This document shows, piece after piece, positions 25,257 to 57,975 of a stretch of DNA of 64,000 nucleotides. Origin of the DNA: Fomitopsis serialis (Eukaryota; Basidiomycota; Agaricomycetes; Polyporales; Fomitopsidaceae). Location: NCBI RefSeq assembly GCF_022376445.1, contig NW_025954978.1, positions 1 to 64,000 on the forward strand. The letters are read 5' to 3'. Position 1 is the first letter of the stretch, and the number at the start of each line of letters is the position of its first letter. Position numbers and translations under genes: made by a program. A model generated the notes under the pieces. That model saw only the letters and a program-made list of their open reading frames with translations, made no database searches and was not told the DNA's origin.

Positions 25257-28200
25257 ATGCCGCCCAACATGTCAACACGCCAGCGACTTCTACTCTACCA
25301 ACTACTGGTCTCTCTCATAGCCACAGGATACTTCGTTGGCTCTCCACCTCGGCCCGTTGAAGAATACTTAGGTTCTCTCTCTGTCCTCGGCAACTTGGTG
25401 CTGTACTTCTCCGTCCTCGGTCTGTATGCCTCCTCGGTCTTCGCAGTCATTCACTGGTGCATCTTGCCTTGTGTCATACTCTGTGTCTCTCGGCTCTTCG
25501 GAAGACCGGTCAATTCCAGGAACTGCCATCAGCATGTGCAGTACCTGCAGGTTCGTACTTCACTTATTCCCATCTTACCGCTCCCTCACGTCTGCCCGCC
25601 GTAGTCCGCGATCCGCGGCTATCTTCACAAGCAATGTCGGGAACAGGTACGTCTTCCCTCTTCGCCTCTCGGTTCCCTGCGGCTGACATCCTTTGCGCCG
25701 GCAGCTGGCTTCGACTTCGCTGGATTGGGAGCTCCGCTTCCAGCGCCTCCAGCACGCGAATGCGGCCCTCCAGCAGACAATCGAAGCCCTCGAAGCCAGC
25801 ACCGACGCCGCCCGCGCCGACAACGCCGCCCTTCGGACGAACGGCGCGAAGCTGCTTTCCGTTATGCAAGCCTGGCGCGTGGCAGGCAGGCGCCGCGTGA
25901 AGAAGCAGACTAAGAAGCTCGTCGACTCGCGCATTGGACACAAGAGCACCCTTTCGGACCTACGGAAGGAACGGCGCACGCATGCGACGACGAAGGACAC
26001 GGCTACCGACTGGGAGACTCGCGCTCGCGAGCACGAAGCGAAGGTGCTCGAGCTCCAGTCCGCGCTGAAGGAGTGCGAGATCCGCGCCCGGAAGCACGAG
26101 CTCCTCGCCAACGACTGGAGGTCGCGTACATCCGATGGGAAGGCTGCGATCAAGGAGCTCGAGTCTCACAAGCGCAACTTGGAGGTGAAGGCCGCCGACT
26201 TCGAGACCAAGGCTACGGATTGGGAGACACAGGCTACGGAGTGGCGGACAGAGGCTACCGACCTGCGGGCCGAGGCCGAGGCATGGCAGAAGTATACCTA
26301 CGATCTGGACGCCACCGCTAAAGCTTGGAAAGTCAGTTCGAAGGAGTTCGAGGCCAAGGCGCACAAGCATGAGACCAAAATCCACGAGCTGCGGACGCTT
26401 AACGAAAAGCTCAAGGAGAAAGTCGTCAAATGGAAGGATAATGCGACTACGCTGGAGACCGAGGCCGGTGAATGGAAGGTCCGCGCTCACAACGAGGAAG
26501 GCAGGGCCAACGATCTCAAGACACACGCTTCCGAGCTCGAGACGCAGATCGACGAGTGGAAAACACTTGCCATGGAGTACGAGTGTCTGGCCAGCAACTG
26601 GGAAGCTCACGCTCGCGACGAGGAAGTTAGGGGCAATGGCCTCGAGACGCACGCTTCCGAGCTCAAGGGTCAAATCGACGAGTGGAAAGCCGTTGCCGCG
26701 AAGCACGAAACTCACGCCAATAACTGGGAATCCCACGCTCACGACGAGCAAGCCAGGGCTAGCAACCTCGAGACGCGCGCTTCCGAGCTCAACGGACAAA
26801 TTGACACATTGCAGGCCCTTGCCACGGAGCATGAGACCAAGGCTTGCGAATGGGAATCCCGCGCTCACGACGAGGAAGCTAGGGCTAATAGCCTCCAGTC
26901 ACACGCTTCTGAGCTCACGGTGCAGATCCACAAGCTGGAGACCCTTGTTATGGAGCATGAGGCTAGCACCAATGACTGGAAGGCCCGCGCCCACGACGAG
27001 GAATCTAGGGCCAACGGTCTCGAGACACACGCTTCCGAGCTCGAAGGGCAGATCGACGCGTGGCAAGCCCTTTCCAAGGAGCACGAGACCAAGGCGAGTG
27101 ACTGGGAAGCTCGCGCTCATGACGAGGAGGCCAGAGCCAACGGCCTCGAGACTCGCGCCTCCGAGCTCAATGTTCAAATCGAAGAGTGGAAAGCCGTTGC
27201 CGCGAAGCACGAAACTCGCGCCAGTAACTGGGAATCCCGCGCTCATGACGATCAAGCCAGGGTCAACGACCTCGAGACACGCACTTCCGAGCTTGACGGT
27301 CAAATCGACACATTGCAAGCCCTTGCCGCGGAGCACGAGACCAAGGCGTTCAACTGGGAAACTCGCGCTCGCGACGAGGAAGTCAGGGCCAATGGCCTCA
27401 ACACACGCGTTTCCGCGCTCAAGGTGCAGATCGACAATCTAAAGACCCTTATTACGGAGCACGAGACCAACGCCAATGACTGGAAGGTCCGCGCCCACGA
27501 CGAGGAATCTAGGGCCAACGGTCTCAAGACACGCGCTTTCGAGCTCGAGGGGCAGATAGTCGGGTTGCGAGCCCTTTTGAAGGAGCACGAGACCAAGGCC
27601 AACGAATGGGAAGCTCGCGTCCACGGCGAGGAAGCCAGAGCGAACAGCCTTGAGGCACACACTTCCGAGCTCAACGGCCAAATCGACGAATGGAAGTCCC
27701 TTGCCGCGAAGCACGAGGCCGAAGCCAATGGCTGGGAAGCCCGCGCTCACGATGAGAAAACCAAGGCTACCGACCTCGAGACACGTGCTTCAGAGCTCGA
27801 AGGGCAAATCGACGAGTGGAAGGCCCTTACGACCGAGTACGAGACCAAGGCGGGCTATCTGCAGACCCGGGCTACCGAGCTTGAGGCGGCAGCTGCTGAC
27901 TGGAAGGTGCGCGCCCACGAGCACGAGAACACTGCCAACGAGTTGGCGTCCCGTATCGCCGAGCAGGAAGCACAGGTCCACGACCTCCAGGCACGCACTA
28001 TCGAGCTTCAGGCCACCATTGACGGCTGCAACACCCGTGCGGCTGAGCAAGAGGCCAGGGTGACCATCTTGGAGGCTCGTGAGCGCGAGTTCAAGACGGC
28101 GATCTGCGACCGGGATTCTCGCGCTCAGGAGCTGGAGACGACAATGCGCGACCGGGACTCTCGCGTTCAACAGCTTGAGGCGACAATATGCGACCAGAAG

Positions 28201-29577
28201 TCACGCATTCGAGTACTTAAGGCCGAGGTCAGAACTTGGGAGTCGCGCGCAGAGGATCATTTGTTCAAATACGAGATCACGGAGGCTCACGCTCGCGATG
28301 AGCAAGCTAGAGCTGACATTGAGGAGGCCCGCGCACTCGAGCTCGAGACCAAGGCAAACAACTTGGCGGCCGTGATTCTTCGATTGGAGGCGCAAGTCAG
28401 CATCAGCGAGGCGAAGGCCCACACCTGCGAGGTCCGTGCGCAGGAAGCAGAGAACAAGGCTGACGACTGGAAGACTCGCGCCTTCGACGAGGCGACTAAA
28501 GCAAAGGACTCGGAAGATCGCATCCACAAGCTCGAGGGCAAGATCGATGACTGCGAGACGGAGCGCAACCAGGTCAAGTCTCAACTGACTGCAGTCCAGC
28601 AACGTTCTCAGAAGACCGAGGCCGAGCTTGCCCGCATCCGCACCACGCTCGACGCACAGAAGAAGACGAACACCTCGCTTGAAACCCTGAACGTCACCCT
28701 TAAGACGGAGCGCGACGACTTCAGAATTCAGTTGGCTGCAAAGGAGGCGCGCGTGCAGGATGTCGAGGCTCAGCTGTCACGCGCTGAAGGCGAAATCGAC
28801 GCTCAGAAAATCGCCTACGAGCTAGTCAAGGAGAACGTCACTACCAGGAACGACCACGATGTTCCGCAGGTCGAGATTCCCGAAGCAGACCGTCAGCATG
28901 GCCGCGATGACGAACACCAGCCGGTCAAGGAACGCGCTCAAACAGCAGAGGCTCAGCTCGCTCTGGTCAAGGAAAAGCTCGAGAACTCCGAGATGCTGTC
29001 TATTCGACTCAGTGAACGCGTGGCTTCGATCGAAATGGACCGTGCCCTGCTCCTGCATCGGCTAGACGAGATGAAGGGCAACAATTGCGGAGGCAACCCG
29101 AATGGCGAGAAACCGGTACCCAACGACAACATGATTCAGCCCGACAAGGAGGCCCAACATCCTTCTGTTACCTTGGACGATTCCTCTGCCATGCGGGACC
29201 TCGTGGTTTTTCTGGCGTACGCCCGGAAACAGCACAAGATTGCACAGAACGCCCAGCAGGTTGATCACGCGAAAACTCATGAAATCCACCTTGCGGCCCA
29301 CACAGTTCTCGACGCTGCCAACAAGAAGGTCGCCTCTGTGCTCAAGGAGATGCATCGACAGCACCATCAATACGAACTCGATCGGTACAAGCAGCAACTG
29401 GATATCGACGCCAAGGACCGCGAACTCAAGGACAACTGGGAGCGTATTCAGGCGCTGGAAACGGCGCTCTGGAAGATGTCTGCACATATCGCCCCGGATG
29501 ATGATGACGCAGAAGCGAATTCGTCTATGGATGCGGAGACCGGCCTCTCTACGGAGGGGCTGGCCGCATTGGCTTGA
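25257..29577 (+). CDS. Membrane-anchored giant coiled-coil repeat protein
   Basis: Uncharacterised protein of 1402 residues in three exons: 25257-25550, 25605-25646 (14 codons) and 25705-29577. The phases close, and the start is the ATG of MPPNMSTRQR. Residues about 9-26 and 43-77 are hydrophobic and look like one or two transmembrane segments or a hairpin, so the rod probably hangs from a membrane. From about residue 113 to 1250 the chain is almost continuous coiled coil, with Glu/Lys/Ala heptads and regularly placed Trp. Residues 369-830 are eleven consecutive 42-residue units (six heptads each). The end is less regular, acidic, and terminates in GLSTEGLAALA. No catalytic domain is visible. 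A tether, spacer or cytoskeletal rod role is inference from shape only; I know of no named family. Confidence 0.85.
26473..27858 (+). repeat. Eleven 126-bp coding repeats
   Basis: Each unit is exactly 126 bp (42 codons), beginning at a Trp codon: 26473, 26599 and so on every 126 bp to 27733. The unit consensus starts W-E-(A/S)-R-A-H-D-E-E-A-R-A and contains L-E-T-(H/R)-A-S-E-L and Q-I-D. Units 2-5 pair one by one with units 6-9, so a 504-bp block of four units was itself duplicated. Confidence 0.95.
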
Positions 29578-41429: not shown

Positions 41430-42051
41430 TCAATCCAGGTCATCGATTTTCATCCTAGCCAACAGATCCGCGAAGGTTTCCAAATCGGCGCGCTTGTGCT
41501 TCCTATGATTCAAGCTCTTCTCCACCGGCTCTGGAGTGTTTGGCGGCGGCGGAGGAGGCGGCGGAGGTGAAGGGGTGCGATTTCTCGCAGGAGAGCGAGC
41601 CTGCAAGTAGTCAACGATGTCATAGAGATCGCGCTTGTGCTTCCTATGATTCAAATTCGTCACCACCGGCTCTGGGGTGTTTGGCGGAGGAGGAGGCGGC
41701 GGAGGAGGCGAAGGGGTACGATGCCGCGCAGGAGAGCGAGCCTGCAAGTATTCAATGACGTCGTATAGATCGCGCTTGTGTTTCCTATGGTTCTTCTCCT
41801 CCGGTTCCGGGGTGTTTGGCGGCGGAGGGGGAGGCGGCGGGGGCGAAGGGGTGCGGTTCCGCGCAGGAGAGCGAGCCTGAACGGCACGGGCATCAAGCGA
41901 CCCGTCATAGAATCCACGAGTATTCCTGAGGATGGGTCAGGATTGTCAATGGGATGTTACGGGCACGGACGTACAAATCAATGGGAAGAGCAATAGCCGG
42001 GACGATAGCACCTGCAACGAGTGCCGCCGTCGCAACGATGGAATAACGCAT
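41430..42051 (-). CDS. Secreted repeat protein with Lys-Arg-punctuated units
   Basis: Predicted 190 residues in two exons, 42051-41975 and 41925-41430 (GTACGT donor, phase closes). The start MRYSIVATA is followed by a clear signal peptide ending near AIALPID. The mature part has three repeats, each with QARSPAR(N/H)RTPS, then a run of about nine prolines, NTPEP and HRKHKR. The Lys-Arg pairs lie exactly 141 bp (47 residues) apart, at 41772, 41631 and 41490. After the first two comes DLYD(V/I)(I/V)(E/D)YL; after the third comes the terminal ADLETFADLLARMKIDDLD. This is the layout of fungal Kex2-processed repeat proteins, some of which give pheromone-like or cyclic peptides, others surface proteins. 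No modifying-enzyme gene (UstY or tyrosinase type) was seen nearby. A wall-type proline-rich protein is the alternative. Confidence 0.75.
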
Positions 42052-42255: not shown

Positions 42256-42263
42256 CTTATATA
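42256..42263 (-). promoter_or_regulatory. TATA box of the secreted repeat protein
   Basis: TATATAAG on the minus strand, 73 bp upstream of the 5'-UTR intron donor. This is the expected position for a transcript starting near 42230 and is one of the clearest core promoters in the window. Confidence 0.55.
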
Positions 42264-55276: not shown

Positions 55277-56294
55277 TCTGTGCGCATGCTATCGCGCGTC
55301 GCCTTCGCGAACGCTGCGTATCAGACCTGGTCCTCCCTCGAAGGTGTCATTCGCACTTCTCACTATTTGCGGGAAACTCATTACATTGATCGTCAGTGAT
55401 TATGATCGAGAATTTCGACCTCCTTTGGGCCCAGGGTCATCGTCCAGGAGCCGCGGAAGCTCTCTGGATCAGAACCCTGCAGCTGAATTGGAGCCTCACA
55501 CAATGGTATTGCTTCTGCTGCGTCTACCTTGCGCTTGCTTGCACCAGTGCGGCGCGGAAGATTGCCGAGCAGAGTCGCGACAGAGAGCGGAATCTACGCT
55601 GCTATCGCTCGCCTTGATTTACGACAGGAAGGGGGCACTATGTCGTGAGCGCTTGAGCTCCGAGTCGTGTGTACCGCAGATACTTAGCGATGACGACCTG
55701 GACGATGGAGCCATCCCGTGTTACACATCCCTCGTTGGGCACACCCGTGTCCGCAAGTAAGGGCAAAGCGCGAGATGATCAGCCAGCTCCTGCGGGTATG
55801 TTACATACCTCTACTTACTGGAGTCGCTTGGTATCGTCGATGTTTCGGTTGACGCGCCGCACATGCACTTTTCCGTGACGGCTCACTGAGCCCCCGCCGT
55901 GTATGAATTCAGGATTTGCCAGACGGAAGTGACTGGATCTGATCCCTATCATGAACTATGGTCATGTTGGCCTTGTGTTGGCCCGCTGTGAAACGAACTT
56001 CCATACCGTCAAGAAGCTTGACATAAGGTCCGAGAATCGATTGGCTTGCGCCGATGTCGTGAGGCAGTACTTACTATAACTGATTCGTCTCTCAGGATCT
56101 CATGACCACTGGCACCAGGCCTAAGGCCTAAGGAGGGAACTCCTCACGGACATTCCCACTCTTACGGTAGCCGCAGGAAGTTGGCCCGCCGCTGGAACTC
56201 AACGCGTACGCATTGTGTATCAAACCGTCATCGCGGCATACTAGTACCAGCTAACCTCTGTCGTCCGCAGTCCGCGCTGTAGCGATCACTCGAG
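55277..56294. other. Possible intron-split gene, not resolved
   Basis: Several coding-like pieces lie on the plus strand: an ATG at about 55286 (MLSRVAFANAAYQTWSSLE), YDREFRPPLGPGSSSRSR near 55398, and GTPVSASKGKARDDQPAPAG near 55738-55797, followed by a GTATGT donor. I could not connect them in one phase, so no CDS is called. It may be a small fast-evolving gene or remnants of one. Confidence 0.3.
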
Positions 56295-57975
56295 ATGAAT
56301 ACCGATTGGCTTCCACTTTCGATGATGCCCAAAACGGCCTTGCCTGTATGCTTGCCACAAGCTCTGCTCGACGATCTCAAACTCCAAGTCGATCCAGATT
56401 TCTACTCCGAGCTTTCCGTGGTCTACGGCAGGGCCGCCAGGGTGTCCCCTATGCGTCACTTGATACTACGACACTACGTTCTCGCACTGGGGGATGCGTA
56501 TACGACAATCGACGAAACATGGGCTGGTCACAACGACAACGACTGGTCCCTCCCGCAGATCATGCCAAATGGGTGCGGGAGCACACACCTCCAACTCGCC
56601 GTGCGGCTCTATGACGTGCCATTCGTATACGAATGCATCCGTCTAGGTGCCGACGTCAACCACTCGGACGTCAAGGGGCGGACACCGCTGTTCTGCGCCA
56701 TGAACGAGTTGCTTGGGTTTTCGCTAGACCTGGCCACGCGACAGCTGCGCCACAATGGCACCGAGGACGAAAGCCTCACCGTATCCACTATTTCTCGGTT
56801 GCGACACGTGGCGCAGATCCTAGTCGAGCAGCACGCCGATGTCAATCTCGTCCCTTACGAGAGCCCGGTGCTCTCGCCGTTTGTCATGGCTCGGGCAGCT
56901 CTAGACTTAGAACTACTCGAGTTGCTGGCGCTCCATGGGGCCGCTGCTGGACTTGATAGGGCCTTCCTCGAAGGCCCGCCTTCCCAGCTTGACACTTGGG
57001 TTGCCGATCCCTCGAGAGCATCAGCTTGCACAGAGCTAATGGCGCGTCTGGCATCGAGAACGGAACTACCAGCGCGACCACCGCGTAAATGCCCATGCTT
57101 CTCGGGGAAGTCACTCTCCGAATGTCATGAAACGGGCGATCACCCATATCCTCCTACGTTCGCATGCATCTGCAGGTCGGCGAAGACATATGCAAACTGC
57201 TGCAAGCTCAGAAATATCGAGCTGGTGGAGAGATGGGACGAGGAGCGGGGGCGTATGAAAGTCACCCAGCGCATGATGGAAGCCGACGGACATACGGCTA
57301 CCTACATACCCTTTTCCACTGTGAACACGCTGATGTCCGCGAAATGGCCGGACACGGGAAAGAAGAAGTCGTCCGAGCTCGTGCTCATGGCCATCGAGCA
57401 TAACGATACCGAAAGCGAAGTGAAAGCTGACCCGGCTTTCCGGTATGTGGCGACTCAGCTTGAATATCTGCCTATGTCAGTGTTCCATGCCGAATGTTTT
57501 GTATCTGTCTGACAGGTCAGACATCTTCAGGCCCGAGGGATCGGAATGGTATCCAAAGGATTTGGGCAAGTTTATCAGCACCGGTTGGAATAGTTGTGTC
57601 GACAAGTACATCGCATCCGGCCAAGACACTCGGAGTGTACCCACGATCGAACGGGCCGCCAAGCTGGATCCCTTTTTCCTGCCCTCTGGAAGAGATGTGA
57701 AGCGTCCAGGTGTACAACGACAGAGCGTCCGGGGCTCAAGATGAAGCGCTGTCACGGGTGTCAGAAGGTTCGCAGTTTTTGTGGATGTCTGGTTCTACCT
57801 TAGCTCATCTGGTAGCGTAGATATATTACTGCGGCGCGCCATGCCAGAAAGCACATTGGCGGGAGCACAAGGATGCATGCAAGAGAGGAGACCATCCGCT
57901 GCAGATGTTGCGATCGCAGAGAATCTACTCGACTATTCTCAACGACGTCATCAAGCCTGGGGAAGAACGTAGATT
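56295..57975 (+). CDS. Ankyrin, SEC-C-like and MYND-finger protein, possible frameshift
   Basis: Exon 1 (56295-57442) encodes about 382 residues with at least two ankyrin repeats (THLQLAVRLYDVPFVYECIR, LGADVNHSDVKGRTPLFCA) and a Cys-rich region KCPCFSGKSLSECHE followed by FACICRSAKTYANCC, like a SEC-C metal-binding motif. Exon 2 starts at 57516 (SDIFRPEGSEWYPKDLGKF). A MYND zinc finger follows: KRCEASRCTTTERPGLKMKR, CHGCQK, then after the intron 57768-57820 IYYCGAPCQKAHWREHKDAC. The MYND part is one base out of frame with exon 2; a run of five T at 57673-57677 is the likely site, so this is either a recent frameshift or a sequencing error. The 3' end is uncertain. MYND domains bind proline-rich partners; the role here is unknown. 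Confidence 0.7.

What the first reader, a model, noticed from the sequence alone, without database searches (positions are those of the whole stretch)
41430..42051. Candidate Kex2-processed secreted repeat peptide precursor
Signal peptide, then three repeats with a Lys-Arg pair every 141 bp (47 residues), each preceded by HRKH and, for the first two, followed by DLYD-x-x-x-YL. A polyproline run sits in each unit. The layout matches fungal Kex2-processed repeat proteins, which include precursors of pheromones, repellents and cyclic ribosomal peptides. The gene has a clear TATA box and a 5'-UTR intron. Repeated Tyr next to the cleavage site would be a candidate for modification, but no tailoring enzyme is visible nearby, so the product may be a linear or wall-associated peptide.
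Basis: partly seen in the sequence, partly recalled or inferred. Interest (0 to 1): 0.75.

Follow-up and report, generated by a model that had tools for sequence, protein, structure and literature searches.

The report
Fungal secreted repeat-peptide precursor gene
A polypore fungus carries an apparently unannotated but clearly selected gene for a small secreted protein whose three repeats end in cutting signals for the Kex2 protease, so it probably releases proline-rich peptides, and it looks like one branch of a large fast-changing family of secreted proteins in the same genome.

Summary
The minus strand encodes 190 residues in two coding exons (42051-41975, 41925-41430; 49-nt intron): signal peptide, three units with nine prolines each, HRKH-KR every 47 residues. 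It meets published rules for Kex2-processed repeat proteins (KEPs) as I re-coded them. A neighbour protein identifies Fomitopsis serialis. An allele-like copy and a four-unit paralogue pair exist. The paralogue keeps the TATA box, both introns and HKR at each unit end, the fourth behind a frame break. dN/dS is 0.16 in the mature part, 0.01 in prolines. A kexin homologue exists; no UstYa match lies on the contig, so linear peptides are likeliest.

New: the gene is probably an outlying member of a clustered family, about 55 places on 21 contigs, haplotypes counted together, with a 77-nt signal exon, phase-2 intron and acidic caps around a variable core. Against a simple KEP reading, KR/RR sites are rarer than in shuffles there; 5 of 15 complete models have none, 2 of 15 no dibasic at all. 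Cleavage, expression and function are untested.

The parts
42256..42263 (-). TATA box (TATATAAG)
   Evidence: read directly; the block GCATGTATATAAGGAG is identical in the paralogue on C423
42123..42183 (-). 5'-UTR intron (GTAAGT..CAG), 61 nt
   Evidence: consensus ends; donor and acceptor conserved in the paralogue; no RNA evidence
41975..42051 (-). coding exon 1, 77 nt, signal peptide MRYSIVATAALVAGAIVPAIA with likely cut AIA|LP; ends in phase 2
   Evidence: highest 11-residue hydropathy 2.40 here, at most 0.76 beyond residue 30; SignalP was not available; exon 1 is 77 nt in all 25 family models
41926..41974 (-). coding intron, 49 nt, GTACGT..CTGAC..CAG
   Evidence: same place and phase in the C27 copy (49 nt) and in C554 and C423 (54 nt)
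41430..41925 (-). coding exon 2: leader, three repeats and C-terminal tail, stop included
   Evidence: dN/dS 0.16 against paralogue C554 up to the last KR
41772..41879 (-). unit 1 (QARSPARNRTPS-P9-NTPEPEEKNHRKHKR); KR at 41777-41772
41631..41771 (-). unit 2, 47 residues (DLYDVIEYLQARSPARHRTPS-P9-NTPEPVVTNLNHRKHKR); KR at 41636-41631; predicted product without KR 45 residues, 5096.649 Da monoisotopic
41490..41630 (-). unit 3, 47 residues (DLYDIVDYLQARSPARNRTPS-P9-NTPEPVEKSLNHRKHKR); KR at 41495-41490; predicted product without KR 45 residues, 5089.627 Da
   Evidence: unit 2 against unit 3: 12 synonymous and 7 non-synonymous changes
41430..41489 (-). C-terminal acidic tail ADLETFADLLARMKIDDLD and stop; 2164.072 Da if released
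   Evidence: the allele-like copy on C27 differs by K to E; resembles the family cap ...ELFERGFEIDELD

Best explanation
A KEP-type precursor. The protein enters the secretory pathway by its signal peptide (inferred from sequence). A kexin cuts after the three HRKH-KR sites (inferred), and Kex1-type trimming of K and R leaves peptides of about 45 residues: an acidic Tyr/Leu arm (DLYD[VI][IV][ED]YLQAR), a Ser/Pro hinge, nine prolines and a basic His/Lys/Arg end. The leader with the first proline unit and a 19-residue acidic tail are released as well. No UstYa gene is linked, so the products are most likely linear, perhaps O-mannosylated at Ser/Thr-Pro (general knowledge, not tested). The peptides most likely act outside the cell on biotic partners or on the wall (guess). 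The gene probably arose inside a clustered family of secreted proteins with constant signal exon and acidic caps around variable proline-rich or basic cores; the regular KR sites are a feature of this branch.
For: Gene structure and KR register; KEP rules met as re-coded; the four-unit paralogue has HKR at each unit end (three in frame, the fourth behind a frame break) and keeps TATA, both introns and start; purifying selection, 39 proline codons with 22 synonymous and 1 non-synonymous change, HKR plus arms dN/dS 0.09; kexin homologue with S8 and P-domain matches on C68, best PDB match Kexin 1OT5 at E 3.2e-58; KEPs of other agaricomycetes give linear peptides seen by mass spectrometry (PMC9769878); family context.
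Against: No expression or peptide data. No relative in another species was found. KR/RR sites are rarer than in shuffles in the wider family, 5 of 15 complete models have none and 2 of 15 have no dibasic at all, so the shared function of that family does not seem to need Kex2. P1' is Asp or Ala, not a known optimum (recalled). Both paralogue copies have one-base differences in C-runs that break the frame: assembly error or decay. The link of the window gene itself to the family is moderate: 5 of 23 models reach at most 2 of 300 shuffles, 18 do not, and the search with the 224-residue member listed neither C90 nor C554 at E 0.01.
Confidence: 0.6

Rival explanations
1. Secreted disordered proline-rich protein that works whole, in the wall or matrix. 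The acidic arms and basic ends pair between chains, and the KR pairs are part of the basic linker, cut only in passing or not at all.
For: The wider family keeps caps and mostly proline-rich or basic cores while dibasic sites vary (5 of 15 complete models without KR or RR, 2 of 15 without any dibasic). The proline run is the most constrained part. The single-sequence model is mostly unstructured with three helices at the arms, mean pLDDT 59.7, pTM 0.17, too weak to decide.
Against: In this branch HKR stands at each unit end of window and paralogue, and a kexin homologue exists in the genome.
Confidence: 0.25
2. RiPP precursor of the dikaritin type: the Tyr residues next to the KR sites are cyclised by UstYa-type enzymes encoded elsewhere.
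For: Signal peptide, Kex2 repeats and Tyr in the first four residues of units 2 and 3; the genome has at least 33 UstYa exon matches.
Against: None of the 33 matches is on C90, C27, C423 or C554, nor on any of the 21 contigs with family places. The core is 45 residues, longer than known dikaritin cores (recalled). Where DUF3328 genes accompany KEP genes (22% of KEPs) they lie on average 3.09 genes away (PMC7329392 abstract).
Confidence: 0.07
3. Pheromone or alpha-factor-like signal peptide.
For: The KEP layout is shared with alpha-type pheromones (PMC6339444 abstract).
Against: KR is followed by DL, DL and AD, not the XA or XP of STE13 substrates; no CAAX end; 45-residue units.
Confidence: 0.03
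4. Not a functional gene: repeat-rich relic.
For: Not in the protein collection searched although a neighbour on the same contig is; paralogue frames broken by single bases.
Against: dN/dS 0.16, prolines 0.01; conserved promoter and introns; the allele-like copy differs by 2 coding bases in 570.
Confidence: 0.05

Closest known systems
KEX2-processed repeat proteins (KEPs) of Agaricomycetes (Vogt 2022, PMC9769878; Umemura 2020, PMC7329392; Le Marquer 2019, PMC6339444)
   Same: Signal-peptide-like start, under 300 residues, similar fragments separated by KR, kexin homologue in the genome, no linked UstYa match.
   Different: Units of 47 residues made of an acidic arm, nine prolines and a basic end, against short cores such as SGTGEASAADW; no Trp in the protein; no Gln after KR; probably belongs to a family in which KR is not general.
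MiSSP8 of Laccaria bicolor (seen only as a passage in PMC7329392)
   Same: Small secreted repeat precursor with Kex2 sites in an agaricomycete.
   Different: No sequence compared; the DW[KR]R motif of that group (recalled) cannot be present, since the window protein has no Trp.
Dikaritin precursors (ustiloxin, phomopsin)
   Same: Secreted Kex2 repeat precursor with Tyr in the core.
   Different: No UstYa match on the contig; long proline-rich core; no EDYXI motif (motif from PMC6339444).
Ustilago maydis Rep1 and Rsp3 (Rep1 in a passage of PMC7329392; Rsp3 in a search listing; otherwise recalled)
   Same: Repetitive secreted proteins of a basidiomycete; Rep1 is cut into peptides.
   Different: Rep1 peptides are hydrophobic (recalled); here no 11-residue stretch beyond residue 30 exceeds a hydropathy of 0.76.
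Conotoxin or MSDIN gene families (recalled)
   Same: Wider family only: constant signal exon and constant flanks around a variable core.
   Different: No Cys in the mature window protein; nothing known of toxicity or of a matching maturation route; the analogy is one of gene design alone.

Membership tests
KEP | N-terminal signal peptide, no other membrane segment | tested here: inconclusive
   Hydrophobic stretch and AxA site; hydropathy 2.40 against at most 0.76 beyond residue 30; SignalP and TMHMM were not available
KEP | At least 2 dibasic sites, one fragment similar to at least 2 others (70% identity), under 800 residues (Vogt rules) | tested here: met
   cut at KR, RR, KK, RK: fragments of 51, 42 and 42 residues are pairwise 83-90% identical over 31-42 residues
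KEP | At least 3 tandem repeats of at least 8 residues between Kex2 sites, none over 100 (Umemura rule) | tested here: met
   3 repeated stretches, aligned over 31-42 residues; the first is bounded by the signal peptide on one side; my repeat scoring approximates the author's script
KEP | At least 4 fragments after KR/RR cuts and at least 3 similar (Le Marquer rule) | tested here: met
   Fragments of 54, 45, 45, 19; first three pairwise 81-89% identical; BLASTP used in place of FIMO
KEP | Actual cleavage by kexin | not testable with these tools
   No peptide or protease data; a kexin homologue exists
KEP | Dibasic sites kept in relatives | tested here: inconclusive
   HKR at each unit end of the paralogue, the fourth behind a frame break; in the wider family 5 of 15 complete models lack KR/RR and 2 of 15 lack any dibasic
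Dikaritin RiPP | UstYa/DUF3328 gene close by | tested here: not met
   33 matches listed for the genome (a lower bound, exon by exon), none on C90, C27, C423 or C554
Alpha-type pheromone precursor | STE13 XA/XP dipeptides after KR | tested here: not met
   DL, DL, AD
Basidiomycete lipopeptide pheromone | C-terminal CAAX | tested here: not met
   C-terminus is DDLD
F. serialis cap-core-cap secreted family (described here) | 77-nt signal exon beginning MRYS, phase-2 intron of about 50 nt | tested here: met
   same in all 25 models (donor looked for at 74-80 nt), among them the window gene and its allele-like copy; the members were found by a pattern for this layout, so the feature is partly the selection rule
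F. serialis cap-core-cap secreted family (described here) | Post-intron acidic cap and C-terminal acidic cap by sequence | tested here: inconclusive
   5 of 23 models at most 2 of 300 shuffles with the window protein; 6 of 23 at 0 of 300 with paralogue C554; C554 found by member L074 at E 3.9e-4, not by L057 at E 0.01

The most novel reading that the evidence does not exclude
The gene is one branch of an undescribed, clustered, rapidly diversifying family of secreted peptides in a brown-rot polypore: signal exon and acidic caps are held constant while cores are swapped and rewritten, and regular Kex2 sites were gained in this branch, turning a capped protein into a multi-copy peptide precursor. 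It would be a fungal counterpart, in gene design, to variable-core peptide families such as conotoxins or MSDIN.
Probability: 0.4. Interest if true: 0.7.

Novelty: new variant of a known kind. Interest (0 to 1): 0.5.

Why it matters
Published surveys find KEPs in nearly all fungi, with largely unknown function (abstracts). This case adds an apparently unannotated one with clear evidence of selection, a paralogue, and a family background that suggests how repeat precursors may arise. The family, about 55 places in an assembly that seems to hold both haplotypes, offers a natural series to ask whether Kex2 sites, proline runs or caps are what selection keeps. If peptides are released, the masses given here can be sought directly in culture fluid.

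Tried and rejected
Database relatives: the plain protein (718 candidates, none at E 1e-3) and a proline-masked two-row alignment (4302 candidates, none at E 1) found nothing, not even the gene itself; the database does hold Fomitopsis serialis, Rhodofomes, Daedalea and Postia proteins. A gene model of very different length would have been missed. Pfam: only hits under the curated cut-off for the gene and for four family members. PDB: only weak hits, E 0.013 to 0.092. Weaker own-genome hits on C1, C623, C290 and C241 were read and dropped as chance proline or low-score matches; those on C468 and C216 led to the family, the one on C223 showed nothing, those on C335 and C417 were not read. A first motif pattern was badly chosen and told nothing. 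An amphipathic-helix claim was dropped: hydrophobic moments of the four arms tested are ordinary, reached by 33-50% of shuffles; only the tail is near the edge (5%). A promoter/terminator scan models bacterial signals and gave nothing usable. Enrichment of KR/RR before acidic stretches across the family was tested and not found: 10 of 21 observed, 8.6 of 37.4 in shuffles, 689 of 2000 shuffles reach it. Some of the 15 are close to one another (L052 and L057; L054 and L067). Paper searches for such a family showed nothing fitting; only listings were read.

Full report
What is there. On the minus strand, 42051 to 41430, a gene with two coding exons encodes a 190-residue protein: MRYSIVATAALVAGAIVPAIA signal peptide, a short leader with TRGFYDGSLDAR, three units each holding SPARxRTPS, nine prolines, NTPEP and NHRKHKR, and the tail ADLETFADLLARMKIDDLD. 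The KR pairs are 47 residues apart. The repeat stands out by DNA and by protein: 163 of 169 mature residues are in repeated windows, against none in each of 20 shuffles.

Organism. A neighbouring ORF of the window (56283-57512) is 100% identical over 96% of its stop-to-stop length to B0H18DRAFT_158812 of Fomitopsis serialis, on a contig of 499,200 bases; the window's contig C90 has that length. The assembly has 66 Mb in 806 contigs and seems to hold both haplotypes (inference from near-identical copies). The taxon is a polypore of the Fomitopsidaceae; its brown-rot habit is recalled.

Is it a real gene? The protein is not in the collection searched, although its neighbour is, so it seems unannotated. 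Evidence of function comes from copies in the genome. C27 holds an allele-like copy with 2 coding differences in 570 bases, one of them K to E in the tail. C554 and C423 hold a paralogue pair with four units. Between window and paralogue the TATA box, the 5'-UTR intron, the start region and the coding intron are conserved. Over the aligned codons dN/dS is 0.18 in exon 1, 0.16 from there to the last KR, 0.09 in HKR plus arms, and 0.01 in proline codons, where 39 codons carry 22 synonymous and 1 non-synonymous change. The prolines are therefore kept by selection on protein. The estimate is Nei-Gojobori on one pair, with dS above 1 in the mature part. Both paralogue copies have one-base differences in C-runs that shift the frame, in the fourth unit in both and also early in C423; this looks like assembly error but cannot be settled here. 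HKR is read at all four unit ends of the paralogue, the fourth behind the break.

Does it fit a KEP? Three published surveys give explicit rules (methods sections read). Cutting in silico at KR/RR gives fragments of 54, 45, 45 and 19 residues, and the first three are pairwise 81-89% identical over 37 to 45 residues; with the four-dibasic cut 83-90% over 31 to 42. The rules are met as I re-coded them; SignalP, TMHMM and FIMO were not at hand. The genome has a kexin homologue: S8 and P-domain matches adjoin on C68 (the only P-domain match listed), and one stop-free stretch matches Kexin 1OT5 at E 3.2e-58, ahead of furin. KR is followed by DL, DL and AD, so STE13 trimming is not expected. In other agaricomycetes KEP peptides were found by mass spectrometry as linear, little-modified peptides, and six kep knockouts had no visible phenotype (PMC9769878: abstract, results parts 1 and 2 of 3, one methods section and discussion read). 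Of PMC7329392 I saw the abstract, one methods section and passages; of PMC6339444 the abstract, one methods and one results section.

Tailoring. The genome search lists 33 UstYa matches, a lower bound, on 14 contigs; none is on C90, C27, C423 or C554, nor on any of the 21 contigs with family places. In the window 20 of the 135 listed stop-to-stop ORFs of at least 120 residues were scanned with Pfam at E 0.01; no tailoring domain appeared. These scans ignore introns, so small exons may be missed.

The wider family. Low-scoring hits to the signal peptide led to a pattern for the exon-intron layout: ATG CGN TWY TCN, donor near base 77, acceptor. It gave 67 rows against 6 for the reversed control; by my reading 46 rows (45 places) are family-like and 21 are not. 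Of the 30 loci handed out, 19 encode family-like proteins and 11 do not. Eight more loci were fetched, all with the signal exon that had brought them in. The layout in the main clade is: 77-nt signal exon, phase-2 intron, RATEDASxVERELQDxLVERGYYDDLVSRDLEAR, a variable core, and REYDLDGELFERGFEIDELD at the end. In 10 complete members of that clade mean pairwise identity is 80% in the signal peptide, 70% in the N-cap, 23% in the core and 83% in the C-cap (45 pairs; identity over the longer sequence, so unequal core lengths lower the core value). Hits form 55 places on 21 contigs when hits within 1,200 bases are joined, haplotypes counted together and the window gene with its three copies included; I chose the rows that entered this count. 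Of six gene pairs compared, the core has pN above pS in three (L054/L067, 4 against 0 changes; L062/L064, 0.38 against 0.19; L062/L063, 0.19 against 0.14) and not in the other three. Poor core alignment may cause this. In L054 and L067 the cores are nearly identical while the leaders differ, which suggests exchange between genes.

Does the window gene belong to it? The gene layout is the same. L071 on C435 has three units of YYDDLVAR-SRG-S-P9-NTP, matching the window's S-P9-NTP; with proline runs masked, that pair is not above shuffles (91 of 300). Five of 23 members exceed nearly all shuffles against the window protein and 18 do not; six of 23 exceed all 300 against the paralogue. A genome search with member L074 finds C554 at E 3.9e-4, signal peptide included; the one with L057 lists neither C90 nor C554 at E 0.01. 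I take membership as probable, about 0.75.

What this does to the KEP reading. If KR processing were the point of the family, dibasic sites would be kept. In 15 complete models, the window gene among them, there are 21 KR/RR sites against 37.4 in shuffles, fewer than in each of 2000 shuffles or equal; 5 of 15 have no KR or RR, and 2 of 15 no dibasic even with KK and RK counted. Alternating Pro-Arg cores may explain part of the deficit. The window protein alone shows no deficit (906 of 2000 shuffles reach its 3 sites). So regular KR sites are a property of this branch, where they stand at the unit ends of both loci. The likeliest account is a secreted capped-core family, one branch of which became a multi-copy peptide precursor.

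Mechanism and its status. Shown by sequence: gene structure, conservation, selection, layout, presence of a kexin gene. Inferred: secretion, cleavage at KR, trimming, linear products of 45 residues with a possible helix at the acidic arm (single-sequence model, mean pLDDT 59.7) and a stiff proline rod. Guess: action outside the cell on partners or on the wall.

Novelty. KEPs are a known class. New here are the composite 47-residue unit and the probable nesting in a family where KR is not general.

Noticed in passing
G000 contigs C216, C797, C127, C128, C468, C71, C457 and others: Clustered family of secreted proteins with constant signal exon and acidic caps around variable cores; 9 places on C216 and 13 on C797 within about 34 and 71 kb.
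   Followed up: partly
window 25687-29577 (+): 1296-residue ORF with an array of about eleven 126-bp repeats (26455-27851); only Pfam hits under the cut-off, the best to Tropomyosin.
   Followed up: no
window 56283-57512 (+): Annotated gene B0H18DRAFT_158812; relatives in F. serialis, Rhodofomes and Daedalea carry MYND or ankyrin domains.
   Followed up: partly
G000, 14 contigs: 33 UstYa (DUF3328) exon matches in this polypore, several on the same contig such as C113 and C151.
   Followed up: no
L026 and L027 (C554, C423): The two copies of the four-repeat paralogue differ by single bases in C-runs, which looks like uncorrected assembly error.
   Followed up: partly
L054 and L067: Two family genes with almost identical cores but different signal exons, suggesting exchange of cores between genes.
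   Followed up: no
window 42051-41430: NRTP occurs in units 1 and 3 but HRTP in unit 2: a possible N-glycosylation sequon, weakened by the following Pro, that varies between units.
   Followed up: no
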